A stretch of DNA of 64,000 nucleotides from Eucommia ulmoides (taxonomy: Eukaryota; Streptophyta; Magnoliopsida; Garryales; Eucommiaceae): positions 4,349,726-4,413,725 of the forward strand of contig CM028327.1 of assembly GCA_016647705.1 (NCBI GenBank), read 5' to 3'. The notes below the pieces were generated by a model. The model had not been told where the DNA came from and made no database searches. It saw only the letters and a list, made by a program, of their open reading frames with translations. Of the stretch, positions 3,595 through 52,681 are shown one piece after another. Numbering within the stretch: position 1 is the first letter of the stretch; each line of letters starts with the position of its first letter. A program made the translations under genes and the position numbers.

Positions 3595-4311
3595 AAAAGG
3601 AAGTGTATTCTGTGATTACCAAATCAGATAACGGAGGTCAAAAACAGATTTAGAACATCAAAAAACCTCATAAACCGGTCCAAGTTTTTAAAAAACCGAT
3701 CAACAAAGGCCTAAACCGGGACAAATAAGTATTGATGATATGGTAGGGGTTGAGGAGATAGCTGGGGCGCTGACGTGGCAGATGGTCAACGCTGATGTGG
3801 CAAAGGTCAATGCTGACGTGGTGCTGAATAGGCGCTAATTGGGCAACTAGGGTTGATGTGGTAGCAACAAAGAAGACAGAGAGTGAAATAGGTGTGTGGA
3901 TCTGACGCGATTTTGGAGTAGCTTGTTCAGGCTGCGTGTGTAGGGGCGTGCGGCGACGGATGGTGATGAGCCTTGCGTCTTTGGAATCATCTCGTCAATA
4001 CAGTTCCGACGGTATATCGTGAGATAGATTTGGAGCTCTGGTTGAGGCGTTAGAGCCCAAAATCCGAGACTTCAAAGAGTGATGGTACTGCGGGCTGTTG
4101 AAGGCGCGTGATAGCGCGTCTGGACTTCGGTGGCGATGATTTTGGTGACGTTGTGTTCGTCTCTTCAAGACGAAAACGGAAGTATGGTATTTGTTGATAC
4201 CAGAGAAGTGACGAAATCTACAGTAGCGATGAAAGCCTTGGAAGAATAAGGGCGGCGGCAAAAGCGTTAGGGTTGCGAAAAATTTATTGAGAACATGCCC
4301 AGGGAAGACTT

Positions 4312-27350: not shown

Positions 27351-29196
27351 TGTTGGCCCAGTAAAATACCCAAGAGGGGGGGTGAATTGGGTAATTAAAA
27401 ATTAATCCAAATATTAGAAAAAAAATACTTTAATAACTCAAATAATTAATTTTAATTCTAAATTAATTATTATCTTTATATCACAGTAAAAATATAAAAT
27501 CAACTAAGTGCACACCAAATAACAAAAATAAATAAAGTAAAGATTACAGCACATCAGAAATTTATACTGATTTATCAAGTTACTCTTAGCTAATCCAGTC
27601 CTCCGAGCCCCACGGAGAGTCGCACCCACTAAACTTAAGATTCCTTTAAAAGTATGAACCAAACCCTCACAAAGATTCTTTTACAGGCTCAGAATCAATT
27701 TTTACAAAATTTTCTTTTCACAGGTTAAGGAATAACCTCTAGTTTTTACAAGCTCTCAAGAATAACTTAATTCTTTTTAACATAAAGGCTAAAAAATCAA
27801 AACCTCACAAAACACTCCAAATATCCTTTTACCCGGTAAGGATTGAACCGTTACAAAATCCACACAAAATAATTCAATTCATGAAGAATTACTACCTCAA
27901 TCTCTTTACAGGAAGAGACCAAAACCAGCTACCCTTTGATTAAATACACACAACAGTATTTAATCTGTCACTCAACTTACCAATTAAAAATTTGACAAGT
28001 GATTTTTCTCACTCGGAGTTTCTACCACCCCAGATAAATTAAAACTCAATTAATATCTCAAAACTAGTGATAGAAAAGTGAGAAACTCAAAATCTGATTT
28101 TAAACAAAAATGGGTAGCACGTAATTGAATACGTAATCAGATTAATTCAAGAAATTGTTTAAAAAATATTTTTCAATAAAAAATCAGAAAAAAAAAATTT
28201 AAAGATCAAATTCCAAAAATTAATCAAGCAATACTATATATAAAGTAATTTGAAAAGATCTCACCCGGAATCTACCGAAAAAAATAATTAGAGCGATATT
28301 ACTTCAGATTCGGTAGCAGTAATGATTCTCAGCAAATGATTCTCAAGAATATCTCGTAGAAAAGCTCTCACAAAAACTCAATATGATTTCTCTTAGAAAA
28401 GCTCAATATAATCTCTTGATTTCTCTTAATCTCTTTTAAATCCTACACAAAAAATGGTTAGTAACGGCTACTTTCAGATTAAAATCCAGAATTTCATAAT
28501 ATCCTGAAATAGACACACAAGTCGACCGACCAAGATCAGCAGTCGACCGCTCGATTCAGGATGTAGCCAAGCCAAAGATTTTGTGCCCATCGGTCGACCT
28601 ATCTGTCGACTTAGAGATTCAAAGAGTTGCATTTATTTTCACAGATCGACCGCGCTGTCGACTTATAGATACAGAGAGTTTATTTTTAAGTACAGGTCGA
28701 CCTACCTGTCGACCGAGAGATACAGAGAGTTTTCATTCTTTGTCCGGTCGACTTACCAGTCGACTTATGAATGCTGGATCACTTTTCTAAACTCGTTTTT
28801 AATTTATTCTTATTGACATTTTCGTCCCTTTAACCAATTTCTTTTCTTGGTTAGCTCCACTAAATACTTAAATTTAATTTTAATTAATTATAAATATTTC
28901 TTTTTCAATTATACATATGAACAAATAATTTAGCTAATTATGATCCTATTAAAAACACACATATTTATAAAAATCTTTTTTGTGTCGTGTATGATCCTAA
29001 TTGGGATATTAAGAGTTGAAATTTAACTTGAGTTATTTTCCCTAGGTTCTTCAAATTTCTCAATCTCTTAATCCTTCATAAACTTTATCATCATATTTTC
29101 ATAATTTGAAACTAATAAATTGAAACACTTAATCAAACTGTTAGTTGCACAAAAAATATCAACCTTTAATTGTCCATCAAAATCTTAAGATCAACA
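27351..29196 (-). repeat. 3' LTR of the SIRE-like element
   Basis: 1846 bp, TGTTG..CAACA ends. It contains four tandem units of about 50-55 bases (28590-28775), each with paired GTCGAC palindromes and a GAGATAC AGAGAGTTT core. The matching LTR is at 34489-36305. Confidence 0.9.
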
Positions 29197-29211
29197 ATCT
29201 CCCCATTTTTT

Positions 29212-30605
29212 ATGATGACAATTAACTTTGATGTTTTCTTTAAAATAATAATATAACCACACTCTCCCTGAATTCGAGAACAAGTTTTATAACTCATTTA
29301 AGAATAAGAATGAAGATATTAAAAATAATCAACAAAGCACAAATATAAAAACAAACTCCCCCTTAAGATATTCAATCAAACATCAACTAATTCTCCCCCT
29401 TGGTCATCTCAAAAAAAAAATTAGGGAGAGGGGAACCAAAAACACTACTCTAGACAAATATCATTATGCCCAAAAACATCATTCTAAACATCTAATCTTC
29501 CTCTATATAATTAAAAATAAGCAAATTCATGCATATGTGAATAATCATAACATTTCAGCAATGTAGCATGATATCAATTAATATCTTCCTAGAATCTAGA
29601 AACGTGTGACTTTTAACGCACTAGAATAGGAAGCATATCTCAAGAATAATTTATCAATCATTCTCATCAACATGTACGATCACTAATTAATTTCAAGCAA
29701 TCTTAATCCTATCAATCAATGAAGTTATCTCAAGTAACATGCTTCTTATAATCATTAACACCCAAAAACATAAATTATATCTCAATCAATAACAATGTTA
29801 ACTCATATCAATCTAGATCTCTTCATAAATATAAGTATTTAAAAATCAAGAGACATAAAACATATGAGAAAAACAGATTATCATGTATATAATAAGATAC
29901 TTGATATCCATAAATATATTCACGTGCAGAAAAATATTAACTTGAAACACTAAGCACAGTTTGCTTGTATTCAAATGATCATATATGGTATCAAAAAGAA
30001 TTCTCATATTTTCATACTAATTTAACTATAAAAATCTTATCATTATCAAATTAAATCATTCAATTCATCTCAATATAAAATATTATGCATTTTAATAAGT
30101 TAAGATGCATAAAAAATCAGCTTAATTCAACTTATTTGTATAAAAGTAAATAGCATAAATGTCAGTACATTATATAAATAATCTTACTAAAGTACATATG
30201 CAACAAATAATTAGCACTATTTAGTGAGACCACAAACACTTGATTAATCTTTTAAATCACATAACATGCTTTAAAATAAACACATGATCACTACTTGATA
30301 TAAGCATATAAAGACATGTTAATACCCCTTAACTAAATGTGATTTTCAGAATCACCATATAATGTTTCTAAAATAACAAATAACCACATCATTGAAAATA
30401 GGTCTTAGAAACCATCACCAACTTACTTATTTGGCAAGTTGGACACATCCCCCTTTAACAAATTTAATGAATTTAAAATGCAGTGGGTTAGGAGTACATT
30501 TTCTATCTTTTGGGACAACTCTGCTCTTTACCTCATTTATACCGATGATTGATTTGGATGCACAATTCTTCTTTGCTTGTTCGTATCCTCTCAACCTTTT
30601 ATTTT
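29212..30605 (-). other. SIRE-like internal region, 3' side, mostly non-coding
   Basis: A/T-rich and closed in all frames over most of its length. The part next to the nested LTR (30605-30427) is open on the - strand and appears to continue the gag-side frame up to a stop at 30427. Its C-terminal half (KSRVVPKDRKCTPNPLHF) is not recognised. No integrase or RT motif found. Confidence 0.55.
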
Positions 30606-34488: not shown

Positions 34489-36305
34489 TGTTGGCCCAGT
34501 GAAATACCCAAGAGGGGGGGTGAATTGAGTAATTAAAAATTAATCCAAATATCAAAGAAAAAATACTTTAATAACTCAAATAATTAATTTTAATCCTAAA
34601 TTAATTATTATCTTTATATCACAGCGAAAATATTAAATCAACTAGGTGCACACTAAATAACAAAAATAAATAAAGTAAAGATTGCAGCACACCAGAAATT
34701 TATACTGATTTACCAAGCTACTCTTGGCTAATCCAATCCCCCGAGCCCCACGGAGAGTCGCACCCACTAAACTCAAGATTCCTTTAAAGGTAAGAACCAA
34801 ACTCTTACAAAGATTCTTTTACAGTTTCAGAATCAACATTTACAAAATTTTCTTTTCACAGGCTAAGGAATAACCTCTACTTTTTACAAGCTCTCAAGAA
34901 TAACCTAATTCTTTTTAACACAAAAGCTAAAGAATCAAAATCTCACAAAACACTCCAAATATTCTTTTACCCTGTAAGGAATGAACCATTATAAATTATT
35001 ACCTCAATCTCTTTACAGAAAGAGACCGAAACCAGTTTTCCTTTGATTAAATACACTCAACAGTATTTAATCCGTCACTCAACTTAAAAAATTGACAAGT
35101 GATTTTTCTCACTCGGAGCTTCTACCACCCCAGATAAATTAAAACTCAATTAATATCCCAAAACTAATGATAGAAAAGTAAGAAATTCAAAATCTGATTT
35201 TAAACAAAAATGGATAGCAAGTAATTAAGCACGTAATCAGATTAATTTAAGAAATTATTTCAAAAATATTTTTCAATAAAAAATCAGAAAACTATTTCTA
35301 AAGATCAAATTCCAAAAATTAATCAAGCAATACTATATATAAAGTAATTTGAAAAGATCTCACTCGGAATCCACCGAAAAAAATAATTAGAGCGATGTTA
35401 CTTCAGATTCGGTAGCAGCAATGATTCTCAGCAAATGATTCTCAAGAATGTCTCTTAGAAAAATTCTCACAAAAACTCAATATGATTTCTTTTAGAAAAA
35501 ATCAATATAATTTCTTAATTTCTCTTAATCTCTCTTAAATCCTAACCAAAAAACGGCTAGTAACGACTACTTTCAGATTAAAATCCAAAATTTCATAATA
35601 TTCTGAAACAGACACACAAGTCGACCGACCAAGATCAGCAGTCGATCGCTCGATTCAGGATGTAGCCAAGCCAAATATTTTGTGCCCATCAATCGACCTA
35701 TCTGTCGACTTAGAGATTCAGTGAGTTTCATTTCTCTTCACAGGTCGGCCTCTCTATCGACTTATAGATATAGAGAGTTCATTTTTAAGTACAGGTCGAC
35801 CTACCTGTCGACAAAGAGATACAGAGAGTTTTCCTTCTTTGTCCGGTCGACTTACCTATCGACTTATGAATGTTGGATCACTTTTCTAAACTCGTTTTTA
35901 ATTCATTCTTACTGACATTTTTGCCCTTTTAACCAACTTTTTTTCTTGGTTAACTCCACTAAATAGTTAAATTCAATTTTAATTAATTATAAATATTTCT
36001 TTTTCAATTACACATAGGAGAAAATAATTTAGCTAATTAGGATCCTATTAAAAACACACATATTTATAAAAATTATTAAAAAAAAAAATTGTGTCGTGTG
36101 TGATCCTAATTGGGATATTAAGAGTCAAAATTTAACTTGAGTTGTTTTCCCTAGGTTCTTCAAATTCTTCAATCTCTTAATCCTTCATCATCTTTATCAT
36201 CATATCTTCGTCATTTGGAACTAATAAACTAAAACACTTAATCAAACTGTTAGTTCCACAAGAAATATCAACCTTTAATTGTCCATCAAAATCTTAGGAT
36301 CAACA
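34489..36305 (-). repeat. 5' LTR of the SIRE-like element
   Basis: 1817 bp, matching 27351-29196 along its length, including the GTCGAC tandem units (about 35690-35870). The 45 bases beyond its outer edge (36306-36350) match the polypurine tract and internal edge of the left LTR, which is not expected for a simple 5' LTR. Confidence 0.9.
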
Positions 36306-36350
36306 ATCTTCCTTTTTTTTATGATGACAATTAACTTTGATGTTTTCTTC

Positions 36351-37149: not shown

Positions 37150-38260
37150 TTCAAATAATATTAAATATACCTCAAAAAAGCTAATAAATTATATGGTGAT
37201 ACATTACCTATCATATAATATACTAAAATAATACAATATAAATTATATGTTACAAATTATAAAAGTATAGGATAATAGTATACCATATCTATTTAATTTA
37301 TTAATACTATTAGTATATATTAAAATATACTAATATTAGTACACTAATAAAATATATGTTATTAATATATTACTATGATATAATAATAATTAATTAATAT
37401 ATATTAATATGCGATTATAAAATTAATTTATAATATTAATTAATATTAAATATATATTATTGGTAATACTAATTATAATAATTAGTATTATATCACTTCC
37501 TAATAATATTGTTATTATTATTATTAATGTATATTACTATTTACTATAATATTATATTGCTATAATAGTATAATAATATTACTATTACAATTAGTAACTA
37601 ATAGTAATACTAGTATACTATTAATAATATATTACAATAAATGTCATATTATAATACTATTAATATTATATTATTAATAATATACTATTAATATTGTAAT
37701 ATACTATAATATAATATTATATTATTACTAATAGTATTAATTAGTATATATTAATAAATACTATTAATATTATTAATAATATAATATATACATAATTATA
37801 ATAATTAGTAATATTAAATATATATTATTACTATTGCATTCACGCTTTTATATATGTTGTAGGTATAGATATAGAAATGTTATGTGCTTATATCTGGCAT
37901 TCATGGTTATATAAGAAAGAATGATATGGTGTTATTGGAAAATTTGAGTAAAGTATAGTCTTCTTTGGGAAAAAGGAAAAGCAAGAAGAATATACCCGAG
38001 GGAGGTGAATTAAATGCGCTAATTTAATAGTATACTAATATTAATATATACTAATACAACAGAGCTTTTTGTTATATTAGTCTATATATTTATATTAATA
38101 TTATTATAATTAATATCATAATTATAATATCCTATTAATGTAATAATAGTATTTTAATATTATTATAAAAAATGGTATAGATTATTTCATAATATATAAT
38201 TAAATTATAGAACAATTATATGAATAATAATAATTATATGGTGCAATGGGTAGATATCTG
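37150..38260. repeat. A/T desert, TAATATTA-rich
   Basis: Over about 650 bases (37190-37830), and again at 38030-38240, almost every base is A or T, built from TAATA, TATTA and ATTATTAAT words, interrupted by a more mixed stretch at 37840-38020. It directly borders the truncated end of the pararetrovirus cluster. Confidence 0.85.
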
Positions 38261-38279
38261 TTTTGAGTAAAAGTTTGAG

Positions 38280-39997
38280 AAAATGGGTTTTAAGAATATC
38301 CTGCGAGACAGTTATCGTAGTAATCGGTGATTTTACTAGGTCTTAAGACCATATTTTCTCATTCCCCGAATAAAACCTCTAGTTAGAAAATCAGGTAAAG
38401 AATTAGATAACCCTTTGATGAATTCAATCTGAAAATTAAATACAGATAGAATAGCTTGCCATCTAACAAATATTTATTTTGAAACTAAATTTTTTACATC
38501 TTTTTCTACAACCTCTTTTGCACTTTTGCAATCAATTTGAAGTAAAAAAAAATTATTATATAAATCATCTTGAAATTTTTTGAATACATAAAACAATTGA
38601 CAAAATTTCCTTTTTTATGATAGAGTAATTGAGTTGGGGGCCTGACTAAGATCTACTATAAAATCTGACTATGGACTATTTTCCTTTCAATTTTTGCTTA
38701 AGAATACCTCCATATCTTATGTCTAAGGCATTAGTTTTTACTATCATAAAGCCCTGAGGATAAGGTATAATGAGACATGACAAAGTTTTGATGCAGGTCT
38801 TGACTTGTTTGACTACCTTCGTATGTTCGTCTGACCAAGGAGAAGAATTCTTTTTGAGTTTTCTATATAAGGGTTTGAGAAGAATCTTGATATTAGGAAT
38901 AAAATTAGCAATTTAATTAAGACATCCTAAAAATCTTTGTAGTTGAGTTTTGTCTTTGATTTCATCTGAAAATTTATCTTCAAATTCAATTGCTTTGTGA
39001 ATTGGGGTAATGGTTCCTTCATAAATGTCATGCCCTAAAAATTTAATTTTTGTTTGGAATAATTTTATTTTTGGTTCTGAGACGACTGAACCATTTCTTT
39101 TGATAATATTGAAGAAAATGTATAACTGTTTGAAATGTTGCTCTATTGATTCTGAAAATACTAGAACATTGTCAATGTAGATAATGGTGAATTTTGTATA
39201 AGGGTTAAAAATTTCATTCATGACATTTTGAAACTCAGATGGAGCATTTTTTTAGTCCGAAAAGCATTACGTTCCATTCGTAGTGACTAAATGGCACCGT
39301 AAAGGTCATTTTGTATTTGTCTTTCTCACAGATTTGGATTTTCCAGAATCTTAATTTCATATCAAATTTTGAGAATATTGTTGCATTAAAAAGTTTGCTT
39401 AGTAGGTCTTTTTTATTTGGTATTGGATATCTGATCCATTAAAGAATTTTGTTTAGGGGTTTGTAATTGATAACTAGTTTTGGTGCTCCTTTTTCTATTT
39501 CGACTCAATTTCTTACATAGAAGGCTGAGCAACTCTAGGGAGATTTACTTTTTCTAATCAATCATTTGTCAAGTAATTCCTTAATTTTCTTTTTGCGATA
39601 TTCTAGTAATTCTTGATTTAATTTGAATTGATCTTGCTTTTGTGGAAATTTTATCTTCAGTAAATTCTTTGATGTAGGGTAATTTTACAGAATGTTTTTT
39701 TCTTGACCAGAAGACATTTGGAAGATTGGAGCAAACTTCTTCTTCTAATAATTCTTTGAATTGATTTGTTTTTACCTCAATTTCTTTTGACTTCAGCTGT
39801 TTTTCAATCCTTTTATAATGAATTTCCTTCCCTAAATATTTAATGTGTCTTCTCTTGTTTTGAACGAGGGTAGTAATTTTCGTTTTTAGCGTATTAATTT
39901 CTCTTTGTTTTGTTTCGTTATTAAAATAAAAATGTATATCTAGTTCAACAATTTTAGTATGAATACCTTCGTTATTAACTTGAAGTGGGTAAAACAT
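38280..39997 (-). pseudogene. EPRV reverse transcriptase / RNase H, broken
   Basis: 39997-39581 holds the end of the protease region and the RT start (motif NVFWSRKKH). 39221-38913 holds the RT core with the active-site box as YIDN (39168-39179) instead of YIDD, followed by KIKFLGHDI and TQLQRFLGCLN. RNase H continues to about 38280 with several stops. It ends at the A/T desert. Confidence 0.85.
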
Positions 39998-39999
39998 GG

Positions 40000-40350
40000 T
40001 AAAAAAAGGCGTTCCTAGAATTATGGGTTGTTATATGTCTCTAACTAAAATGAAAGTAGTTCGGATGCATACATTTTCATTGTTACAAATATGGACATTT
40101 GATATTTTGTAATCTATTTTTAATTTTGAATTATTTACCTCATAAAGTTTTTTAGAGGTTTTTTCATAGTATTGAGTTGGAATAAATCATTCTTGAACAC
40201 AATTTAAATCGGCTCCTGTATCTAATAATGCTTGAGTTTCTATAATGAAATTATCTTTTATGATTAATTTGATATTTGTATACCATTTTTGGACGTAAAG
40301 TTTTAGAGGGTGTTCTTGTTGATTTTTGTCGTTAGTTTCCAAGTCTTCTT
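40000..40350 (-). pseudogene. EPRV aspartic protease, copy A
   Basis: The catalytic box ALLDTGADLNC is intact (DTGA codons at 40211-40222), followed by an ILGTPFF motif near 40010. Stops occur within the domain, so it is not an open gene. It belongs to the polymerase polyprotein upstream of the RT. Confidence 0.8.
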
Positions 40351-41056
40351 CTTCTTGTAGGGTTTTGATTTATTTTTTGACATGGTTAATTTCTTGTTGT
40401 AGTTCTTGAATTGATGGGTTTTTAAATTTTGATTTTGGTTTTAATCCTTTAGATTTATTGCCTATAAGTGGGTTCATTTTTTGAAGTTCTGGTGTTTGAC
40501 AACTTTTTGATTTTTTTTTTCATGATTTATCTATGTTGAGTTAGGTTGGCCTTTTATATTATTTTCTTTTTTGGTTACTTTGGATAGAGTATTAACGGTG
40601 TTATCAGTTAATCTTAATTCAAATAATTTCTTGTCTATGGAATTTATTAAATCATTTATTTTTTTATGGGTTAGAATTTTTTATTGCTCTAAATCAGTAA
40701 GTAATATCTGGTTGTTTTGATTATTATTCTTTGTACTATTTTGAGAGTTGGTTTCTATAGAATTGATATTATGGTCTATTATTTCCCAAGTTTTTTATTT
40801 CTAGTGGTAATGGATTGAGAAAGGTGTGAGGAAATAAGAAGGCTCTTATTTTTTGTCTCTTGGATAGGTCATGTGAAGAGTCTTGATAAGTCACTTTTGA
40901 AGAAGAGGGATCGAAAAAGAGACCTAAAATAGATTGTTTATAATCAGGTTGCTGAAACTTATTTTGAGTGAGTGGGCTGGACATCTTAACAAAGTTGTCG
41001 TAGTAGTCAGTCACTTTACTAGACTTTGATGTCATCCTTATCTTTCCCTGAATCAA
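40351..41056 (-). pseudogene. EPRV-derived region, function unassigned
   Basis: Contains an open stretch 41056-40769 (STKSSKVTDYY-like start, SSKVTYQDSSHDL) and a Lys/Asn-rich, coiled stretch before the protease. A short Asn/Gln-rich part resembles the N-terminal region of the coat-protein frame at 43314, which suggests another rearrangement point. Several stops. Confidence 0.45.
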
Positions 41057-41545
41057 ATTACTGGTTAGAAAATCAGATAAAAAAAATCGTTTGATCCCTT
41101 GATGAATCCAATTTGAAAAAAAAAATGGCCGTCAGCCATTTGGCAAATATTTGTTTTGAAACTGAATTTAAAACTTCAATTTGGAGTAAATATTTTTATT
41201 ATACAAATCATTCTGAAAATTTTGAACAACTGATGAAAATTTTCTTTCGATGGTAGAACATTTGGGCTGGGGGCCAGATCAAGATACTTTCTGAAGAAGA
41301 GGCAAACTGAAAAATGTTTTGACCTGTTTGACTTCTTTTGTATGTTCTTCTAAGCAATGAGGATGATTTTTCTTGAGTTTTCTAAATAAAGGTGTGGGTT
41401 TATATTAAAGTTCTTTGTGAATGGGTTTTGGTTTTGATTTCATTGGGAAATTTATTAGCGAATTTAATTATGTTGTAAGTCGGGATGATAGTTCTTTGGT
41501 GATTATCATGACATAAAATTTTTATTTTATTTTATTCTCTTGTTT
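41000..41545 (-). pseudogene. second RT/RNase H fragment of the EPRV
   Basis: At nucleotide level this stretch follows the order of 38310-39060 (for example GGTTAGAAAATCAG and GCAAATATTTGTTTTGAAACTGAA) but with large internal gaps. It lies between coat protein and protease, where it does not belong in an intact genome. Confidence 0.75.
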
Positions 41546-41559
41546 CTTTAGATTGTTTT

Positions 41560-43314
41560 CCTTGGAGAATATTATACCTTAGTTTAAGTAAATACTTCTT
41601 TTTGTCTTGACTGTGTTCTACATTTTCAAACATGATTTTGCTTTCTTTTAAAATTACATTTATTGTTTTGAACAATTGCAAAATCATATATTTCCGTGGC
41701 ATGATTCTATTGATTCTTGATCGAAGGCTTTGCTTTCGATTTTTACGCTTTCATTCAATTCTTCATTTTCTAATTCACTTGATGAGTCTTCAGTCTCGCT
41801 GCTTATGAGTAAGTTCATTATTTGTTCCTTTAATTTTTTGCTACAATCTAATGTTTGTATTTTTTCTCTCATTTTACAATTTTTACTATAATGTCCAAGT
41901 TTTTCACATTTGTAACATATTATTTCTTTTTTGTTAGATCTTGGTTTTGATTTAACGACATGTTTCTCTTTTTCAAAATATTTTTTCCATTTATTAGAAT
42001 TTCTTGATTTTGGTTTTGAATAATATTTTTTTACAGTTTTACTTTTTTGTCTTGATTTTGAAGATGGTGCTTGAATTTTTTCATACCCGTATTGACTACA
42101 AAAGTCTCATAATTCATTTTTGCTTTGAAAGAGTTCGTTCTTCATTTTCGATTGCAATTTTAGGTTATTACACAAAACTAATCCCTCTTTATTTATTGCA
42201 GTAATTATTTGTCCATAGGTTAATTCACTATAGTGGGTTCCAAGCTCATTTTTTATTCTTTCTTTGACATTTTGAGCAAACAATTTTGGTAATCCTGTTA
42301 TAAATCTTTCTTTCCAGTAAACTTTTCTGCTATCTTCTCTAAAACATATTTTTGACAAAAAATTATCTTTATACCATCTAAAATCTTGAAGTTTTGGGCA
42401 TCTAAGATTTGTTAAAATTTTATCGTTTTTATATATTACATGATTGGGTTCTCCAACGAATGTTTTCGTTATTGTCCAAATTTGGGTACTGAAGGCATCC
42501 GATTCGGGTTGTTGACTAGATCCTTCAACTTTGATGGCATTCAAAATATTAGTTTTTTCTTGACTAGTAAGGGGATTATGTCACAATCCTCTTAATTGTC
42601 CAGTAAATCCTTGAGTTATAAATTTGACTATTGAGACTTCTTCCTTATTTCTCATGTTGTGGGCTACTGCTATCATACCCATTTCGTTTAGTACTCCTAA
42701 TATTTGGTATTTTGTTAGTCCATCAATATTCTATTCGTAAATAGATGTAGCATCATAAACCGTTCTAATTCCAGTTTTTTCTTCATACAACAGGTCAGGA
42801 AAAGAGGATCTAGGATAATATGGTTTTTAAGTTTGTCTCCAATTTGAATTTTTTTCTGAGTATTGTATCCTATTGACTTCTGGAATATTATTTTCCTTGA
42901 ATTGACTCCTAAGTTCTTCTTTTATTGATAAAGTGTTAACAATGTTTTCTTTTAATAATTTAATGTCTAACAGTTCGTTTCCTTCTTTTGAAATTTTAAT
43001 TCATAAATCAAATTTGGAATCATCATCTTTTTTAAAACTTTATGAATGGGATTTTGAAATTTTATTTTATGCTTAGTTTCTTTATTGTCTTGAGATTTTA
43101 ATTGTTTTGTTTCTACTAAAGTATCAGGAGTATTTTTAATTATATTTAGTTGTTCTGCTGTAGTATATAATATTTGATTACTAGTGTGATTGGTATTATT
43201 TTGAGAGTTAGTTTCCCTTTTAAAAATAGAGGATATAGTTTTGAAGATTTTGTGTTCTTTTTCCATTTTGTCTAGGGGTAGATATGTTGAATTAATATTT
43301 GGATTATTATCCAT
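41560..43314 (-). pseudogene. EPRV coat protein, copy A
   Basis: The N-terminal part is open at 43314-42967, the core at 42544-42107 (WKERFITGLPKLFAQNV), and the C-terminal part holds the caulimovirid zinc knuckle CYKCEKLGHYSKNC (41876-41917), followed by an acidic Ser/Glu-rich tail (41872-41684). Frames are separated by stops and shifts. The knuckle is used in virion packaging of RNA/DNA in related viruses. Confidence 0.82.
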
Positions 43315-43349
43315 TATTTTCTTGTTTGTTTGAATAGATTAAATATATT

Positions 43350-44710
43350 TTTTTTTTGTAATATTTATAATAATTAAGGAAGTGTATATTTCATTTTCCT
43401 CTAATCATTTTCTTTTTCCATCTTGACTTAATTTTTTATCTTTCTTCAGCAGAATGTTTTATGAAAAATTTATTTCTTGCTTTCGCATTATTTTCTTGCA
43501 TAAATTCTTTTCTTAAGTAATCCATATCTATTTCAAATTTTTTATTGATGGTTAAGATTTGATTATTTCCTTCATTTTCATCTAAGATTTGAGAAACAGT
43601 AGAAGAGAAAGAACCATCAGACTCTTTTCCATAAATTCCTTGAGGTGTGTTTGATTCAAAATTAACGCATCTTAATTTGTAATATTTATTTGGTTTTGTA
43701 TAAATACTTGAAATATTTTTTTCTTCCTAAATCTTGATAATTTTTAAATGTCTGAGAAGAGTTAAGGCTTCTTGATTTAATTAAGGTATTTGAAAATTTA
43801 TTGTAACATTTCCATCTTAATCTTGACTAAAACTTGTTGCTACGATTTTTGACAATCCTACCATTTTGACTTCTTCGGCTAATTCTTGGAAATTCTATTC
43901 TCCTCCAGTTATGATTTCATTGCATTGAAGTTTTCTAGGTTGAAAGACCAAAACAGTTATATCTTCATTAGCTTGAATAAATGTTATTATTCCTTTAGGA
44001 CTTTCTCTTTTTGCGTTAAGAAAAACTATTGATGTTGTTACTTTGTAGTATACTTTATACATTATTTCTAAATTTTTTGATCCTTTACTCATTTTGTAAT
44101 TTTTTGATTGAATATCTAAGGTTAGAATTTTGTCTAATGATTCGTCATTTAAGTCAACTCTAATATTTGGATAACATTTAAAGTATATTGAACCTTCAGC
44201 TATGTTTGCTTCTAATATTCCTAATAATGAGTCATCAAATTCTTGATGTTTTGAATCCCTAAGGACTATGCATGTGGGTTTATTTAATCCTTCTCTAATT
44301 AAGGGAAATATTCCTACTTGAACTAATCCTGTGTGGATTCTATCATAAATTTGATTAAAAGTTTGTAAGTCATCTTTTGTTAGTAATCTTAATTTTTATC
44401 TTGAATTTTCAGAGTGCATGATTGTTGAATTATTGACAGTCTTGATAGCATATTCTTATTTATTTTCTATAGATCTTATTTGTTTGATAATTTTTTATTC
44501 AGATTTTGACATTTCCCAAATTTCTTTTTCATTTTGTTCTAGAAGACCTATACCTTTCCAATTTTTAAGTCTTTTTTCAATATCACCAAGTGACATGTGG
44601 AATTCTTTAGGACTGGATCTGGAACTAGAACCAACTGAGTCTGATCTTAGGTTGGGGTTTGAGACGGTGTTTTTACATTTTTTAAAGATGTTTTGGAATA
44701 ATTCTTCCAT
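43350..44710 (-). pseudogene. EPRV movement protein, broken
   Basis: First gene after the primer-binding site, as in caulimovirids. Start at 44710 (MEELFQNIFKK); the first open stretch ends at 44495. A second open stretch is 44092-43895. The intervening frame resembles the 30K-type movement protein core (regions around NIRVDL and LTLDIQ near 44150). Multiple stops. Movement proteins carry virus through plasmodesmata. Confidence 0.7.
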
Positions 44711-44719
44711 AATTTAGGG

Positions 44720-45600
44720 CTTATATTATTTTCTTTCCTCACGGAGGTAAAGGGTTCGTAACCTAGACGGGAACACCACCGGGACCACTTCTCCTGGGCT
44801 GACCAACGGACTTACTGGTTCACCAACGCGTAGCAGTTCTACCCATTTTACCAATTATGTTTCAAGAAAACAATATAAACTTGCCACTACGAAAAGAACA
44901 TCCCAAGAAAACTGCACCTCTAGAACCGGCAAGAGCACTAGTCTCCCACCCCCCCGGGGAACATGGCTCACGGGCTCTGATACTAGAGTCGGGACTGGGA
45001 ACGGGAACGGGGCAACGGCAGAAGGGTTGAGAGAAGAGTAGATATTTTATTGAAAATAATAATTACAATACAAGTAGATAATATATGAAAAAAATATTGA
45101 AATACATGAATGCAAATATTAAAAACTTTCAATGCAAATCTTGAATAAACCTTTACAAGTAGTAAAATGATCTTGAAGAGAAATATAAAATATTTGAACA
45201 CTCCAACACTCCTAAATTTTGTAGTAATGTTTTTCTTGCGTGTTTTTTCCCTCATCCGAACTGAAGAACCACTTCTCCTTTTATACAGAAGTTTGCCAAC
45301 ATTCGAATCTTTACAGACGAATATTTTCTGAAAAAGTGATGGGTGTTTTTTGAATAGTAACTCCCCTTTTTGACAAAATTGGCCTAACTTTTCCATTTTG
45401 AATATTGAAATGAGACTTGAGAATTCCATCCGTAAGAATATTGTGTAGTCTTGGCCTTTAAAATAGTGTCCCTTTAATATTTGGGCACATGAAACAGTAG
45501 GTAGTCTTTTTGAAAATTTTGTTACCTTTAGTAGAGTGGGACTGAAATATTCTTGGGATATGTTTCTTGAAGAGAGTTTATGTTGACACGTGGACAACGT
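44720..45600 (-). promoter_or_regulatory. EPRV intergenic region: promoter, poly(A) signal, primer site
   Basis: On the - strand, in order: TATA box TATAAAAG (45285-45278), poly(A) signal AATAAA (45051-45046) about 200 bases after the expected start of transcription, and a primer-binding site TAGTATCAGAGCCC (44985-44972). The same order and similar spacing occur in caulimovirus pregenomic RNA. The leader 44985-44715 is GC-richer than the rest of the cluster. The open frame across this region is not a gene. Confidence 0.75.
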
Positions 45601-45731
45601 GATGATGTAAGCGATGGCGAATTATTGAGATGATCATACCACACAAGAACGGTAGCCTCTGGGTGTAAAACACATGATCATGAACAAAGTATACCAATAA
45701 TTATTGGATTTTTGCAGGAATAGTGATTTAT

Positions 45732-47702
45732 TTATTTTTTAAATTTTCGCAACATTTTTTGAATTTTCACTAATTTGTTTTCCATCATATTATCTAAGTT
45801 AAATTCTTTAAAGTCGGATTCACATCCTGGAGGGATAACTTTATCTTCAAACATAGGGTCATGATTAAGTTCTTGAAGCCATTCTTCTTTGTAATGGTTG
45901 AACAGAGGGGATTTGATATTGACCGAAAATTTGACTTCGGGAAGATAATCTTGATAGTGATAATTTTTTTGAATTGAGTCTTCTGCTACCAATTTGAGGG
46001 GACCATAAAGATAAATAATGCGTCTGAAGTCGATTTTTCTAACGACATTCCGGATAATCCAATGCTCTATTTGATCTTCAAGAGGAACGCAACAATTGAT
46101 CCAGGTATAATTGATCCATGGCATTCTGAGAGGAGTTCTACCTTTATCGAACAACAAACTCTTTTCTCTTTCGATTAGGGAAATTTTATGCTGGACTGGA
46201 GTGGGATAGAGTCCGTTGAAAATTGGGCCAATAGATTTTAGGGAAAATCGGTAAAAAGGCCCATTTTTTAAGTCTAAATGGTGAAAAGTCATTTTGTATT
46301 ATTAGGTTTTGATTTAGTCCTTTAAATTAGATTTCACTTGTATTTTAGTCCTGCATTACAGAAATTGTAGAGATATTGCAGAAATTGTAGGGAGTCTTTT
46401 AGTGAGTACATTTGGTTTTTATAGTGAATTCTGTTACATGTAACTAATGTTAGTTATAATTTTATAATTGTTATTTTTCACACATATTTGGGTATTTTTA
46501 GTTACATGTATTTATATAATATTAGTTATATATTAAAATTACATATATATGTATAATATTTTGTGACGTAACTGAAAAAAATATCAAATTTTTTAGTCAT
46601 ATATCAGAGACATGTAACTAAAAAGTTACATATTATTAAAACATGTAACTGAAAAATATTAAACTTTTTAGTTACACCTCAGAGACATGTAACTAAAAAA
46701 TTATATATTATTGGAACATGTAACTGGAAAAAAAAAAATAGTTAATTGTAACTAATATAGTAATATTACACACAAAGTAATTACATGTAACTGGCGAGTG
46801 ATTATCACGTGAGAAAAGGTTCCGCCTTTTTAAAACATATGAGACTAAATCAAAAGTTTTTACCGCATGTAGGATTTTTGACCAATTAGAGCTTAAATGG
46901 AAGACCTCCCACCGATTGTCCCTAGATTTTATATAGACTTCGATTCCTTGAATATAGTTTTGAGACAAAATATTGAGCATGCAAATGGTAAGTCTTTTTC
47001 CAAATTGAAAAGTTTGATCTGAGTTATAAATATTGAATTGGGCCAAATAACTGTAATCCAAAAGTTTTTGGGTTGTAAGGATAATGGTTTCATTTTTTAA
47101 GGGAAGCTCAATGGGTTGATAATCGTTTAGGTCAATGGCCACTTGGATGATATTAATACTGGATTGGTATTTTGGTTCGAAGTGGTGGAGGCCATTTTTG
47201 CAGCAGGAAGTAATATTGTAGTAAGAATCATGTTGGATCTTGAGGCTTGAAATAATGAGATTTGCTTGATTAATGCACTGAAGATGGGCTTGAATATGGG
47301 TTTGGATTTTTCAATCCTTTTGATTGGCGGTTTGAATAATATTTTAGGCTATATGGTATGGCAATGGGCTCAAGAAATTAAGTGGAAAGAAATAGGCTCG
47401 AGCTTTTTGTTTCTTGAGTTCTTCTGAAATGAAGGCGTGGTTATTTTTGAATTCAGATGGGTCAATCTGAATGAGGATGAGTATAAAGGATTTGAAGGAT
47501 GTTGATATTTAAAAATTTCAATGGTAATGTCGGAGAGAGAGTGTTGGAGTTTTAAAATTTCTTTCTTTAAGTCCCAAATTTCTTTGAAAAACTCTTCTCC
47601 TCTTTTATGAAGATTTTCAGAACATTTTGCGAGGACTTCACAACTTTGACAAATTCCAAAGGGTTTTGAAGACGAAGATGATGAAAATTCATTTTTTTGC
47701 AA
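45732..47702 (-). pseudogene. EPRV transactivator-like region, interrupted
   Basis: Three open pieces (47702-47370, 47142-46708, 46292-45732) lie just before the intergenic promoter, the place of the transactivator gene in several caulimovirid genera. The first has a Ser-rich start, a CQSC..C pattern and a coiled segment; the last is a 186-codon frame with a Lys-rich end. I did not find a motif that proves a transactivator, so the name rests on position. A probable insertion (46300-46800) separates the last two pieces. Confidence 0.5.
46300..46800. repeat. ACATGTAACT-rich repeat inserted in the EPRV
   Basis: An A/T-rich stretch with repeated ACATGTAACT and AGTTACATGT words in both orientations; a unit of about 90 bases (AGAGACATGTAACTAAAAA) recurs near 46610 and 46690. 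It separates two viral open stretches and shares TGTTACATGTAA-type words with the fold-back element at 57995-58600. Confidence 0.6.
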
Positions 47703-47922
47703 AATATTGAATAGTTGCTAAAATGAACTTGACTTTTATCGGTGAAGGATATTTGAGATTCTAAATATCATCAATTATGCGTTGTAATTTATCATCTATT
47801 TTTACTAAAGACTTGAATGTTTTTTGTTTTTTTTTTGAATTTTTGAAATAGGCTAGAAGAAACAAAATTTACCCAAAATTCTCACGACAGCCATCCATCC
47901 GCAAAAATGAAATGAAAATTAG

Positions 47923-48642
47923 TTATATTATATTTATTACTAAATCTTTTAGAGTGTTGATTTCTTTTTGCTTCATTTTGTTAGTAAAGTAAAAATGTAC
48001 TTTCTGTCCGGCGATAAATGCATGAATTCCTTTGTTATCAACTTGAAAATGATAGAGAAGAGTAAAGAATGGAGTTCCTAAAATCAAGGATTGTTGTGTG
48101 TCTTTGACTATCATGAGAGTAGTTTTAAGGCAAATATTTTTACTGTTACTAATAAGAGCATTTGAAACTTTGTGGTTCATATTTAATTTTGTGTTATCTA
48201 CGCCATAGAGTCTATCTGAAATTTCTTCCAAATATTGAGTTAGAATAAGTTCTTCTTGAACACAATTCAAATCAGCCCCCATATCTAGTAAGGCTTGAGT
48301 TTCTGTTATAAAATCATTATCGATAATTATTTTAATATTTGTATACCATTTGTGAATATAGATTCTTGACATGTATCCGAGAAAAGCTTGTTGATTTTCG
48401 TCGTCTTGATTATTATATTTTTTTATTTCTTAGCTAATATTTGTTTCTTCTTCTTTATTTGTTCCTTCTTTTGAGCTTGAATCTTTTTTGACTTCTTTTC
48501 CCTTTTTGATAAGATTGATTTCTTCTTGAATAATTTTATTTTGATATTTGAGATCATTAATCTCTTTCTGTAATCTGTTATTAATGTTATTAATTTCTTA
48601 TTGAAGATGTTGAATTGTGAGTTGTGACTTTGGTTTACTCAG
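47923..48642 (-). pseudogene. EPRV protease, copy B
   Basis: Open at 48372-47923 with the catalytic box changed to DMGA (48274-48285) and an ILGTPFF motif. The RT that should follow is missing; transactivator-like sequence comes next. The upstream part (48640-48400) is Lys/Glu-rich with stops and is cut by a MITE. Confidence 0.8.
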
Positions 48643-49232
48643 GTGGCGTTTGGTTAGTGTTCCCACTTTTCTGAACCCAATTGGAATGGGTTGGGTTGAG
48701 TTGAATTGGGTTGGGTTGAGAATTTTGGGAACAGAATTACGTTTGGTAACGACAATTTTTGTTTTGTGCTGAGAACAGAATGTGTTTAGTAACGATTTTA
48801 TCCTAAAACTAAATTTTTATTTTTTTATTTTTTTTTGTTTGGTGGCGGCCAGACGGTGGCGGCGACGGTCGCCGGAGGTGGCCTGAGACGGTGGACGGTC
48901 GCCAGACGGCGGAGGCAGCGGACGGCGATGGTCGCCGGCAGCGGAGTTGGCCGGAGACGGCGGTCGGTCGCCGAACGGCGGCAGCGGCGGGTGGTGGTGG
49001 TCGGCCGGCAGATGAAGTCGGAAGTTGAGAACTTTGGGTTGAGTTTTTTGGGCATAAAAAGAAACAACTTTTTTTTGTTTCTGGTTTCTTTAGGATTTTG
49101 AGAATCAATTCCTATTTTTTGGGTTGGGTTGAGTTGAGTTTTGTGTTTGCCAAACGCGTTCCCAAAAATCAAACCCACAATTTTTGGGTTGGATTGGGTT
49201 GGGTTTGGTTGGGAACACTAACCAAACGGGGC
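48643..49232. mobile_element. 590-bp MITE / non-autonomous DNA transposon inside the EPRV
   Basis: Inverted ends GTGGCGTTTGGTTAGTGTTCCC and GGGAACACTAACCAAACGGGGC, flanked by CTCAG on both sides (48638-48642 and 49233-49237). Inside are GGGTTGAGTT-type repeats near both ends and a GC-rich core (48840-49010) made of repeated GACGGTCGCCGG words, perhaps a captured gene piece. Superfamily uncertain. Confidence 0.85.
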
Positions 49233-49237
49233 CTCAG

Positions 49238-50230
49238 TCTTTGGATTATATTTTTTACATTATATTATTACTCTATTTCCCTAGGTTGTTCTTCTTTGAT
49301 AAGATTATGCTTTAATTTGAGTAGATATTCTCCTTTAACAGTAGGGTCTTGAATGTGTTCTAGCATTTCTAACATGATCTGATTTTCTTTTGAAATTACA
49401 TTCATTGTTTTTGAACATTTTCAAAATCTCATATTCTTGTGGCATGATTCTGTTAATTCTTGATCAGAAGCTTCACTTTCGGTTTTTATGATTTCATTCA
49501 ATTCTTCATTTTCTGATTCACTTGATGAATCTTCACTCTCGTTGTTTATGAGTAAATTCATTATTTGTTCCTTTAATTTTTTGCTACAGTCTAATGCTTG
49601 TATTTTTTTCTTTTATTTTACAATTTTTACTATAATGGTCAGGTTTTCCACATTTGTAACATATTATTTCTTTTTTATTAGATTTTGGTTTTGATTTAAT
49701 GATAGGTTTCTCTCTTTCAAAATATTTTTTCCATCTACTAGGATTTTTTGTTTTAGTTTTGAATAATATTTTTTGACGGTTTTGCTTTTTTGTCTTGATT
49801 TTGAAGATGATGCTTGGATTTTTTCATACCCGTATTGACTACAAAAGTCTCCTAATTCATTTTTACTTTGAAGGAGTTCGTTCTTCATTTTTTTATTGCA
49901 GTTTTAGGTTATTACATAAAATTAGTCATTCTTTATTTATTGCGATTATTATTTGTCCATAAGTTAATTCACTATAGTCAGTTCCTAGCTCCTTTCGAAT
50001 TCTTTCCTTGATATTTTGAGCAAACAATTTTAATAATCCTACTATAAACCTTTCTTTCCAGTAAGATTCTCTACTATCCACTCTAAAAAATATTTTTGAC
50101 AAAAATATATCTTTATATCATCTAAAATCTTGAAGTTTTGGGCATCTAAGATTTGCTAAAATTTCATCATTTTTATATATTACATTATTGGGATCTCCAA
50201 CGAATGCTTTTGTTATTGTCCAGATTAGAA
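49238..50230 (-). pseudogene. EPRV coat protein, copy B, 5' truncated
   Basis: Closely matches copy A. The zinc knuckle CYKCGKPDHYSKNC is at 49620-49661, followed leftwards by the Ser/Glu-rich tail. Upstream, 49888-49664 is open (SSSKSRQKSK basic stretch). The match to copy A stops near 50228, the right edge of the cluster. Confidence 0.8.
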
Positions 50231-50760
50231 TGCTAACAATACTTATTCTCACAACAAAAGAATTTCGCCAAGATCACAATGACAAGTCAACATAAGTCGC
50301 AGCTGCCATCAGAAACTCCACCTCCATAAATCTCTCCTCATCTGTTCGGTGTATAATTTTTTGAAATCAATAAAATAATTTTATAATAATTAATTTTACA
50401 TTAAATACTTATACATCACATCTACTCAATATCTTTAATCTTCATTGTTCCCTATTTTGCTCCACATGCCATTGCACTATAACACCATACCTTAAGAAAT
50501 AAGAAATCCATACAACACTAGAGAAAAGAAAAAGGAAATAAATAGAGGACAACCATAGATATACTAGGAGTTGGGTATCATGAAATTGAATCCAAGTTAA
50601 AATTAGAAAATCAATAAGTAGGAAGGTCTTTGACCAAGATTAATGTCTAAAAGATTAAGGAAATTACACACCCAAAAAAATATTAAAAAAAAAAATGAGG
50701 AAGCCAGACTAAATAATTTCATCTTGGGCTAGAACCCAAGAAACCAAGCTGCTCAACTAA
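50231..50760. other. intergenic, 3' flank of the Hsf gene
   Basis: No coding signal. Probably includes the Hsf 3' UTR at its right end. Confidence 0.5.
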
Positions 50761-50804
50761 CACATCTACATCTTCTTCCTCATCATCCGTACCAATATTC
50801 CCAA

Positions 50805-52681
50805 TCAAACCTCCTCTTCTCCATTTGCTTCATTCAACAACTCCTCCCAAAACCCTTCTCCAAACACCCTCTCCTCACTACGTTCCTTGTCTTCATCTTC
50901 ATCCAAACACTCCTCAATCCCCATATCAAATGGTTCCAAATCAAAGCCCAAACCCAAACCAAAATCCTCATCATCACTCTCCACTTTAATAACAACATTT
51001 TGCCCGAATTCTCCACTAGGAAGCCCACTCTCGATCGGCCTTCCCCTCTTCGTTTGAACGGCCTCCTCAATTTCTTTCCTCGTCCCCTTCTCATGAACCA
51101 ATTGATGAACAAAACCGGGGTTTCGAATTGCCTTAGCCAAGAAGCGCATCACCTGTTTGTGCTTGATCTCGGTCCCTTTTAACCTCTCCTCCATTGATTG
51201 TATGTAGGCCTTTGTGGTTTGTTGTTGTTGCCTAAGCTTGACTAGCTCCGTCGTCAGGACCTGCTTGTCGCGCCTCAACCGGTCCACTTCTGCCTCCAAC
51301 CCGAATTGCCCTAACTCAACACAAGAGTCTAAAGCTTGTTGATATGGAGATTGAGACTGAATTGTTTTTCTCCTCCTTAGGTTCTTGAGCAAGTGTCTTT
51401 GCCATCTCAAAAACCCTTCATTTGCAAACTCCCATTTGTCTGGATCCACTTTTTTGAAGCCCTGTTGAATTAACTCAGACAAAATAGCCCAAAAAGTACT
51501 CATGATATATATAGAAGATCTTGAACCCTAATTAAAGAGCTCTAAGTAATGGAACACTACTATATTTAGACATGGTGGACTTTTAAATCTTACCATAATT
51601 TATGTTTGCTTTCCTTTTATAGAAAATGAACAACATATGGAAACCCATTGCCTGAAAAGGTACAATTTTCTATTTTTATTTTACTTAGATGATAATAAAA
51701 TATTGATCTAAATTACATTTTATACTCGAAGTGTGAATTTAGTTTCACTTCCCACCCTAATATTTTAATGTTATCATATTGACCTGTAAAGATTTACATT
51801 TGTGTTTAATTGAACATTTTAACCGAGAACTGACCAATTTTTTTTCTGGATATTTAGGAATTTTTAGCATCTGTATTAAATTTAGTGATTTTTTTACACT
51901 TCATGTCTCTGAACCATGTTAATATTTGACCTAAATTAGTTTAATTCTATCAGAATAAACAATTTATAAAAAAAAAAAAAAAAAATTAGAGTGCAAAGTG
52001 TACCTTGATCTATACTTAGGGTACATGCATTTCTAACTTGATCTAATAAATTAATATAAAATAAATAGTAATAAACACTTTCTAGCTGTTTCATGAAGAG
52101 GCATGGATAAAAAGTGCGAGGAAACACGATCTGGAGAAGTCCAGATGGTATATTGATGAGTCACGAGTTTTCAGATATTTCTTGAACTTTCTTTCCCTTT
52201 TATTTTTAAAAAAATTATTAGCTACTGGTCTGGCGATATCAATTTGCGATTTATAAATTAAAAAATCAGTTGTTTTGAATCCAAACGGGTCTTAAATAAA
52301 GCTAAAAATCAATCAAAATATTGAAAGAAATCATGGTGTGGGGGCAAAAAGCCAAAAAGAGAGAATTAATGAATTCAGATCCCCACGATATGTACTTACA
52401 TAAGTATTGAGCTGCCTCACAAAGCTCGAGAAGTTCTTGTGCTTGAAGTACTTTGGGAGAAGATTAATGGAGAAAGCCTGTGGATCCCACACCACAAAGC
52501 TGTTGTTTCCTCCACTCCAAGAAACAATATGATTCGTGTTTGGATCTTCCACCAGATCGTAGGTTTTTGTAAGAAAAGGTGGAGGACCACTCTCGTGAAG
52601 TCCCTCCATCGGTTGAGGAACCGCAGATGAGCTCGACCCGGCCTGGAACTCCTCCAGCTTTACCGGAGCTAGAGGATTCAT
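50805..52681 (-). CDS. class-A heat stress transcription factor (HsfA6/A2-like)
   Basis: Binds heat shock elements as a trimer and activates stress genes in the nucleus. Exon 1 is 52681-52400 (94 codons), intron 52399-51462 (938 bp, GTAAGT..CAG), exon 2 51461-50805; 312 aa. The DNA-binding domain starts near residue 34 ([15 protein letters not shown]) and is split by the intron after RQLNTY, the conserved Hsf position, then [18 protein letters not shown] heptad-repeat oligomerisation region follows ([19 protein letters not shown]), with the class-A insert before LFLAKAI-type HR-B ([13 protein letters not shown]). A basic KRGR stretch may act in nuclear import. The C-terminal AHA activator motif is FWEELLNE. 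Start MNPLAPVK resembles HsfA6b. Oddity: FLRWQRHLL has Trp where Gly is usual. Confidence 0.95.

What the first reader, a model, noticed from the sequence alone, without database searches (positions are those of the whole stretch)
38280..50230. Mosaic head-to-tail endogenous pararetrovirus with duplicated modules
Two proteases (40.0-40.3 and 47.9-48.4 kb), two coat-protein zinc knuckles (41876-41917 and 49620-49661) and two RT/RNase H segments (38.3-39.5 and 41.0-41.5 kb) are on one strand in an order no single genome would give. One promoter/leader/primer-site region lies between the two units. This is at least two partial genomes joined by recombination, or tandem insertion followed by deletions. 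The genus is not obvious, so the family member may be undescribed.
Basis: partly seen in the sequence, partly recalled or inferred. Interest (0 to 1): 0.75.

Follow-up and report, generated by a model that had tools for sequence, protein, structure and literature searches.

The report
Three-part split plant-virus fossil array
A plant genome, probably that of the tree Eucommia, holds the remains of three different incomplete forms of one extinct plant DNA virus joined head to tail, and the same incomplete forms recur elsewhere in that genome, which suggests that the virus had its genes split over several small genomes.

Summary
The duplicated modules are real, but 'one genome inserted in tandem, then deleted' is not the best reading. 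The window lies in a 947-Mb assembly whose scaffold sizes fit Eucommia ulmoides. In that genome each of the three units is a recurrent, module-deficient form. U3 is form A: MP, no coat protein, PR-RT-RH (10 of 24 pieces upstream of RT hits). U1 is form B1: CP-PR-ORF2, no RT/RH (27 of 64 CP loci). U2 is form B2: MP-CP joined to an RT/RNase H remnant, no PR (10 of 64, one more cut short). Unshared regions (PR, RT/RH) form separate clades; shared ones (MP, CP) are largely mixed. Of 11 A units, 9 have a CP-bearing unit within 20 kb, and scaffold C6 repeats the B1-B2-A order. So this is a compound insertion of a split-genome, florendovirus-like caulimovirid. Two-component cases are published for grape, rice, sorghum and beet. 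New here: the third form, and an in-frame MP loss in 8 of 12 informative B1 copies. Whether B2 was a working component is unproven.

The parts
49252..50236 (-). Unit U1 (form B1): coat protein, middle to C end; zinc knuckle at about 49617-49664; cut at its 5' end by host DNA
48646..49228 (.). Transposon-like insert in U1 with 19-bp perfect terminal inverted repeats (48647-48665 / 49210-49228); absent between CP end and linker in other B1 copies
47926..48429 (-). U1 aspartic protease; its frame ends in a stop just after PR that 23 of 24 mapped B1 copies share at the same place or one codon earlier
47721..47925 (-). U1 stretch between PR and ORF2 that B1 copies share, where form M has RT
46923..47720 (-). 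U1 ORF2, first part
46241..46922 (.). Local AT-rich insert with 75-bp tandem repeats; absent from ORF2 of other B1 copies
45735..46240 (-). U1 ORF2, second part
44712..45734 (-). Intergenic region and leader: TATA 45278-45285, AATAAA 45046-45051, primer-binding-like site 44974-44985
43898..44711 (-). Unit U2 (form B2): movement protein (open piece with the domain 43898-44395)
41529..43600 (-). U2 coat protein: coat domain within 42110-42580, zinc knuckle about 41873-41920
41050..41528 (-). U2 RT C-terminal end and partial RNase H joined straight to the coat protein; no protease, no RT palm
40800..41049 (-). U2 start of ORF2
40561..40765 (-). Unit U3 (form A): remnant of the coat N region, joined to linker; coat domain absent
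39884..40369 (-). U3 aspartic protease
38916..39770 (-). U3 reverse transcriptase (frameshifted)
38339..38912 (-). U3 RNase H region (frameshifted)
38260..38352 (-). U3 first codons of ORF2, in another frame than the end of RNase H; end of the viral DNA
37200..38240 (.). TA-rich host DNA next to the insertion

Best explanation
The locus is a compound insertion of three genome forms of one extinct florendovirus-like caulimovirid with a split genome. Form A (U3) carried MP, PR, RT and RNase H but no coat protein. Form B1 (U1) carried coat protein, PR and its own ORF2 but no RT/RNase H. Form B2 (U2) carried MP and coat protein followed by an RT/RNase H remnant, and no PR. Inferred mechanism: because the forms share promoter, leader and primer site, the polymerase of form A copied all of them, and coat and movement proteins were shared in trans. 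Recombination kept the shared regions alike. Head-to-tail mixed concatemers were captured in the chromosome, here beside TA-rich DNA. Shown: recurrence of the forms, like junctions, co-location, separate trees for unshared regions and largely mixed trees for shared ones. Inferred: trans-complementation, and a working role for B2.
For: Form A: 10 of 24 pieces upstream of RT hits join a coat-N remnant to linker or PR without a coat domain; MP is seen in 8 of the 10. B1: 27 of 64 CP loci, plus 2 without PR; B2: 10 of 64 plus one cut short; CP-PR-RT contiguous in 6 of 64, all only 68-72% like U1 in the zinc-knuckle region; 18 undecided. PR tree: B1 one clade (22 rows, support 99) and A one clade (10 rows from 6 loci, 100); RT end: B2 one clade (10 rows, 99). 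Shared regions: 0 of 310 MP columns separate A from B2, 19 of 309 separate A from M; 0 of 407 zinc-knuckle-region columns separate B1 from B2. 9 of 11 A units have a CP-bearing unit within 20 kb, against about 0.003 expected per unit; scaffold C6 has B1-B2-A in the same order and orientation. MP deletion in B1: 354 nt in three copies against 855 in U2, a difference of 501 nt = 167 codons.
Against: No exogenous virus was seen, so function in trans is not shown. In RT end plus RNase H, differences fixed between A and B2 show no codon-position bias (16/11/13, p 0.62) where A against M does (12/1/24, p 2e-5), so that part of B2 may not have worked; yet its RNase H end has no more stops per copy than that of A. 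Four of 12 informative B1 copies carry a full MP and one of 9 informative B2 copies has the MP deletion, so the forms are not rigid. Mixing is incomplete: 8 of 231 columns past the MP core separate A from B1 and 5 separate B1 from B2, and B1 and B2 labels are more clustered on the CP tree, and B2 on the MP tree, than in any of 500 shuffles. A complete-module relative (M) exists in the same genome and could have been a helper. The A-B1 codon bias in PR is weak (12/10/22, p 0.06). MP and CP trees have few well-supported forks.
Confidence: 0.83

Rival explanations
1. One monopartite virus inserted in tandem here and then lost modules by local deletions.
For: Units are head to tail around one leader; the U2/U3 junction at 40.80-40.77 kb does look local, since the C6 array has about 2.5 kb between the same points.
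Against: The same module losses recur at dozens of other loci with like junctions, and no close relative with CP-PR-RT contiguous was seen among the 46 of 64 CP loci that could be classed.
Confidence: 0.06
2. Defective interfering-like or helper-dependent genomes: B1 and B2 were parasites of form A or of the complete relative M, not partners.
For: No codon-position bias in the RT/RNase H remnant of B2; M copies with CP-PR-RT exist; non-autonomous pararetroviruses with autonomous helpers are proposed in grasses (PMC5491270, abstract).
Against: Form A itself has no coat protein and needs a CP donor; shared regions of A, B1 and B2 are nearer to one another than to M, so M was not the usual exchange partner.
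Confidence: 0.35
3. Copies multiplied after insertion as DNA (segmental duplication of a few rearranged insertions), so recurrence does not reflect viral genomes.
For: The window and the C6 array share order and orientation at 81-97% per segment found.
Against: Other clusters have different orders and orientations (C4, C9, C13, C14, C17); PR and RT split cleanly by form while MP and CP are largely mixed, which duplication alone does not give.
Confidence: 0.1

Closest known systems
Bipartite florendoviruses (Vitis vinifera B and D virus, Oryza sativa B virus, Sorghum bicolor virus; PMC4241990, sections 6 and 7 and passages seen)
   Same: CP-less component A and RT-less component B with shared intergenic region and MP; components of 5.5-6.9 kb; compound insertions of A and B; bias for TA repeats.
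   Different: Here a third form (MP-CP-RT/RH remnant, no PR) recurs; 8 of 12 informative B1 copies have lost MP; the B1 protease frame stops before ORF2 rather than running into a fused extension; no RNase H remnant was found in B1.
ePVCVL and ePVCVL2 non-autonomous pararetroviruses of rice and grasses (PMC5491270, abstract and sections 6, 8, 9 seen)
   Same: ePVCVL2 = MP-PR-RT/RH without CP; ePVCVL = MP-CP-PR without RT/RH; PR dissimilar between partners while intergenic region and MP are nearly the same.
   Different: Two complementary forms there, three forms here; other host lineage.
Wendovirus (PMC9794742, passages seen)
   Same: Two aspartic protease domains in one locus.
   Different: Wendovirus has two unlike proteases in one genome (PF13975 and PF00077 in that paper); here the two are homologous copies in different genome forms.
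Petuvirus: tandem endogenous petunia vein clearing virus (PMC10377300, passages seen)
   Same: Head-to-tail arrays in the host chromosome.
   Different: Those arrays can give complete genomes; here no unit is complete.

Membership tests
Caulimoviridae | 30K-type movement protein and caulimovirid coat domain with zinc knuckle | tested here: met
   PF01107 4e-18, PF22909 2.9e-11, PF00098 1.1e-5
Caulimoviridae | RT nearer to Caulimoviridae than to Metaviridae | tested here: met
   Cauliflower mosaic virus RT 80.6 bits, Ty3 48.8; own-genome hits: 53 of 150 at 46% or more, the other 97 at 42% or less
Caulimoviridae | No long terminal repeats | tested here: met
   Self-BLAST of 36-53 kb shows no repeat pair flanking the array
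Caulimoviridae | tRNA-Met primer site in the leader | tested here: inconclusive
   11 of 12 bases at the expected place, but the match count in the window is chance-like
Florendovirus | ORF1 order MP-CP-PR-RT-RH, then an ORF2 of unknown function in another frame | tested here: inconclusive
   Order seen piecewise in form M; ORF2 starts in another frame at 38352; the 188-aa ORF2 piece had no hits and no florendovirus ORF2 was at hand
Florendovirus | RT-RH clade membership | not testable with these tools
   No named florendovirus sequence came up in any search; the RT group holds dicot and monocot hits, which fits but does not prove it
Bipartite florendovirus | Recurrent CP-less component A | tested here: met
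   10 of 24 pieces
Bipartite florendovirus | Recurrent RT-less component B with MP, CP and AP | tested here: met
   27 of 64 CP loci are RT-less; full MP in 4 of 12 informative B1 copies, deleted in 8
Bipartite florendovirus | Component B fused in frame to an ORF2-like C-terminal extension | tested here: not met
   Stop after PR in 23 of 24 mapped B1 copies
Bipartite florendovirus | High identity of MP and intergenic region between components | tested here: met
   MP: 88.0% between A and B2, 89.0% within; region past the MP core 84.5% between A and B1, 88.7% within. Intergenic region compared only copy by copy with the window, 67-92%
Wendovirus | Two different protease domains in one genome | tested here: not met
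   The two proteases align to each other at 74%; U1 passes RVP, the U3 piece matches it below cut-off; they belong to forms B1 and A

The most novel reading that the evidence does not exclude
A three-component pararetrovirus: three genomes of nearly equal size (about 5.8-6.1 kb by coordinate arithmetic), each lacking modules that the others carry, sharing promoter and primer site and homogenised by recombination, lived together long enough to be captured side by side several times. I know of no three-part genome described for a reverse-transcribing virus (recalled; two searches listed none).
Probability: 0.35. Interest if true: 0.8.

Novelty: new variant of a known kind. Interest (0 to 1): 0.62.

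Why it matters
Split genomes among reverse-transcribing viruses are described only from plant fossils in the papers seen. A case in another host lineage, with a recurrent third form and many copies, lets one follow stepwise loss of modules (B1 with full MP, then an in-frame MP loss) and test whether equal component size and shared control regions keep such a system together. It also warns that 'deleted' endogenous viruses may be faithful copies of incomplete viral genomes.

Tried and rejected
IMG/VR scans with the RT piece, the MP piece and an RT motif pattern found no relatives. Protein searches with MP and the 188-aa ORF2 piece found none. The MP fold was useless (mean pLDDT 34). The RT fold was weak (52); its three viral matches at E <= 0.001 were two badnavirus fragments (34-36% identity) and one without a name (39%), followed by a sweet potato collusive virus fragment (36%) at 0.003. 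An RT tree of 120 hits with two outgroups gave no supported place for the window. I first read the U1/U2/U3 gaps as local deletions and the U1/U2 coat difference as decay of a tandem pair; the genome search overturned the first. I considered Wendovirus (two proteases) and rejected it. I first took the AT block at 46.83-46.43 kb as the insert; comparison with B1 copies puts it at about 46.92-46.24 kb. The RNase H codon counts used one reading phase past a frameshift in U3; one search corrects them and the numbers given here are.
Full report
What was checked. The longest open frames exceed all of 1000 shuffles in each of four zones. RT belongs with Caulimoviridae rather than Metaviridae.

Anatomy in viral sense. 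U1: coat protein from its middle (50236) to its end, a transposon-like insert, linker, PR, ORF2 with an AT-rich insert, intergenic region. U2: leader, MP, coat protein, then at 41.53 kb straight into the RT C-terminal end and a partial RNase H, and the start of ORF2. U3: a remnant of the coat N region, linker, PR, RT, RNase H, the first codons of ORF2, then TA-rich host DNA.

Host. The window is scaffold C3:4349726-4413725 of a 946,670,599-base assembly in 391 contigs. Scaffolds C8 (79,924,242) and C10 (53,144,382) fit the longest scaffold (79.92 Mb) and N50 (53.15 Mb) of the Eucommia ulmoides haploid assembly with 17 chromosomes and about 947.9 Mb (PMC7603500, passages). The published scaffold number (501) differs from 391, so the host name is a strong inference. 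A full-text search for Eucommia with Caulimoviridae gave no paper.

The key test. If the gaps in U1-U3 were local deletions, other copies should not share them. They do. Of the 53 RT hits at 46% or more, I fetched a piece upstream of 24 (4, 20). In 10 a coat-N remnant runs into linker or PR with no coat domain (form A; MP seen in 8 of them; in L013 the linker is gone too), 5 carry coat sequence before PR, 5 are undecided and 4 show no match. Of 64 loci with CP (60 fetched downstream of CP hits among the 116, plus 4 of the upstream pieces), 27 have CP-PR-ORF2 with no RT (B1), 2 the same without PR, 10 have CP-RT end-RNase H with no PR (B2), 1 is B2 but cut short, 6 have CP-PR-RT (form M) and 18 are undecided. 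Four of the 18 (L019, L020, L026, L027) end inside PR next to an RT hit; they and L003, L005 and L014 were treated as M where they entered the trees. Five of the 27 B1 loci belong to a second, divergent lineage (69-74% in the zinc-knuckle region), so the RT-less plan is old.

Movement protein. In 16 B1 loci examined, 8 share an internal MP deletion, 4 have a full MP as far as the piece reaches and 4 gave no answer; in 10 B2 loci, 8 have MP, 1 has the deletion and 1 gave no answer. The spacing across it is 354 nt in three B1 loci and 349 in one, against 855 in U2 and in four fetched copies (L110, L112, L117, L127) and 814-885 in the nine others measured. The difference of 501 is a whole number of codons. 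Three of the four B1 copies with full MP (L047, L052, L055) sit in the early-branching part of the PR tree as drawn (some forks weak), which suggests that MP was lost later.

Separate and shared evolution. PR: B1 forms one clade (22 rows, support 99) and A another (10 rows from 6 loci, 100); M and the divergent B1 are intermixed. RT end: B2 (10 rows, 99) and M (7 rows, 97) are single groups, A (6 rows) at 78. RNase H: B2 (11 rows, 99), M (3 rows, 100), A weak at 62. By contrast the CP tree needs 7 changes for B1 and 5 for B2, and the MP tree 5 for A and 3 for B2. No MP-core column of 310 separates A from B2 and no zinc-knuckle-region column of 407 separates B1 from B2, while A and M differ at 19 of 309 MP columns. 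Against full mixing: 8 of 231 columns past the MP core separate A from B1 and 5 separate B1 from B2; in the next stretch 1 and 5 of 195 do; and the labels B1 and B2 cluster more than in shuffles. Recombination in mixed infections is the simplest cause of the likeness; the rice case shows the same contrast (PMC5491270, section 8).

Did the RT/RNase H part of B2 work? Differences fixed between A and M in RT end plus RNase H fall 12/1/24 over codon positions (p 2e-5), as under selection. Between A and B2 they fall 16/11/13 (p 0.62); the contrast is significant (Fisher 0.006 for third, 0.003 for second positions). So that part of B2 shows no evident protein constraint. Against calling it dead: in the last quarter kilobase of RNase H the best frame of B2 copies has 0-3 stops per copy, no more than in A (1-3). 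PR between A and B1 falls 12/10/22 (p 0.06), and U1 against U3 alone 35/22/51 (p 0.003).

Compound insertions. With neighbours taken to 20 kb, 9 of 11 A units (window included) have a CP-bearing unit beside them; chance gives about 0.003 per unit. The window and scaffold C6 have the same order and orientation in viral sense, B1-B2-A. Segment by segment the C6 copy is 81-97% like the window; the AT insert, the primer-site piece, the coat middle of B2 and one coat-N piece were not found or not fetched there. The U2/U3 junction is local to the window, since C6 has about 2.5 kb between the same points.

Sizes by my arithmetic on coordinates: A 6.11 kb (scaffold C4, primer site to primer site), B1 about 5.96 kb (C10:13.04 Mb, a copy with the MP deletion), B2 about 5.81 kb (C6). 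The last two assume that no foreign insert lies in the parts not fetched. Published components are 5.5-6.9 kb (PMC4241990, section 7).

Known and new. Two-component florendoviruses and their compound insertions are published (PMC4241990; PMC5491270; beet by PMC10377300, passage), so the kind is known. New here are a probable new host, a third recurrent form, the in-frame MP loss in B1, a B1 protease frame that stops before ORF2, and an array holding all three forms. Searches for a three-part pararetrovirus (listings only) showed no such report; the beet study itself was not read.

Limits. Function in trans, age and small RNAs were not tested. Florendovirus membership was not tested against references. 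Loci were chosen by similarity to the window's own pieces, so counts favour its lineage. Hit lists are lower bounds.

Noticed in passing
window 50805-52681, minus strand: A heat-shock-factor gene (HSF DNA-binding domain 1.2e-20; subclass A2 by recall) ends about 0.5 kb before the viral array, on the same strand, so read-through transcripts are possible.
   Followed up: partly
window 50720-50810: The heat-shock-factor frame stops at 50805, while the next bases in another frame look like the usual C-terminal end (by eye, recalled); a frameshift, an assembly error or a real truncation.
   Followed up: no
window 48646-49228: Transposon-like insert with 19-bp perfect terminal inverted repeats and a possible 5-bp target duplication (CTCAG); superfamily not assigned.
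   Followed up: partly
window 46241-46922: AT-rich insert with 75-bp tandem repeats inside ORF2; a similar repeat lies beside another viral copy (L010).
   Followed up: partly
window 727-3615, minus strand: Open frames that read like a Ty1/copia retrotransposon polyprotein (by eye, not searched).
   Followed up: no
window 28901-29240 and 36000-36349: A 350-bp direct repeat at 89% identity, the second copy about 2 kb from the end of the viral array.
   Followed up: no
scaffold C9:30.847-30.866 Mb (L045, L059, L064, L084): B1 and B2 units in opposite orientations a few kb apart, a layout that could give hairpin RNA.
   Followed up: no
L066, L073, L085, L086, L088: A second, divergent RT-less CP-PR-ORF2 lineage; in four of them (L086 not in the tree) PR groups with the complete form M.
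   Followed up: partly
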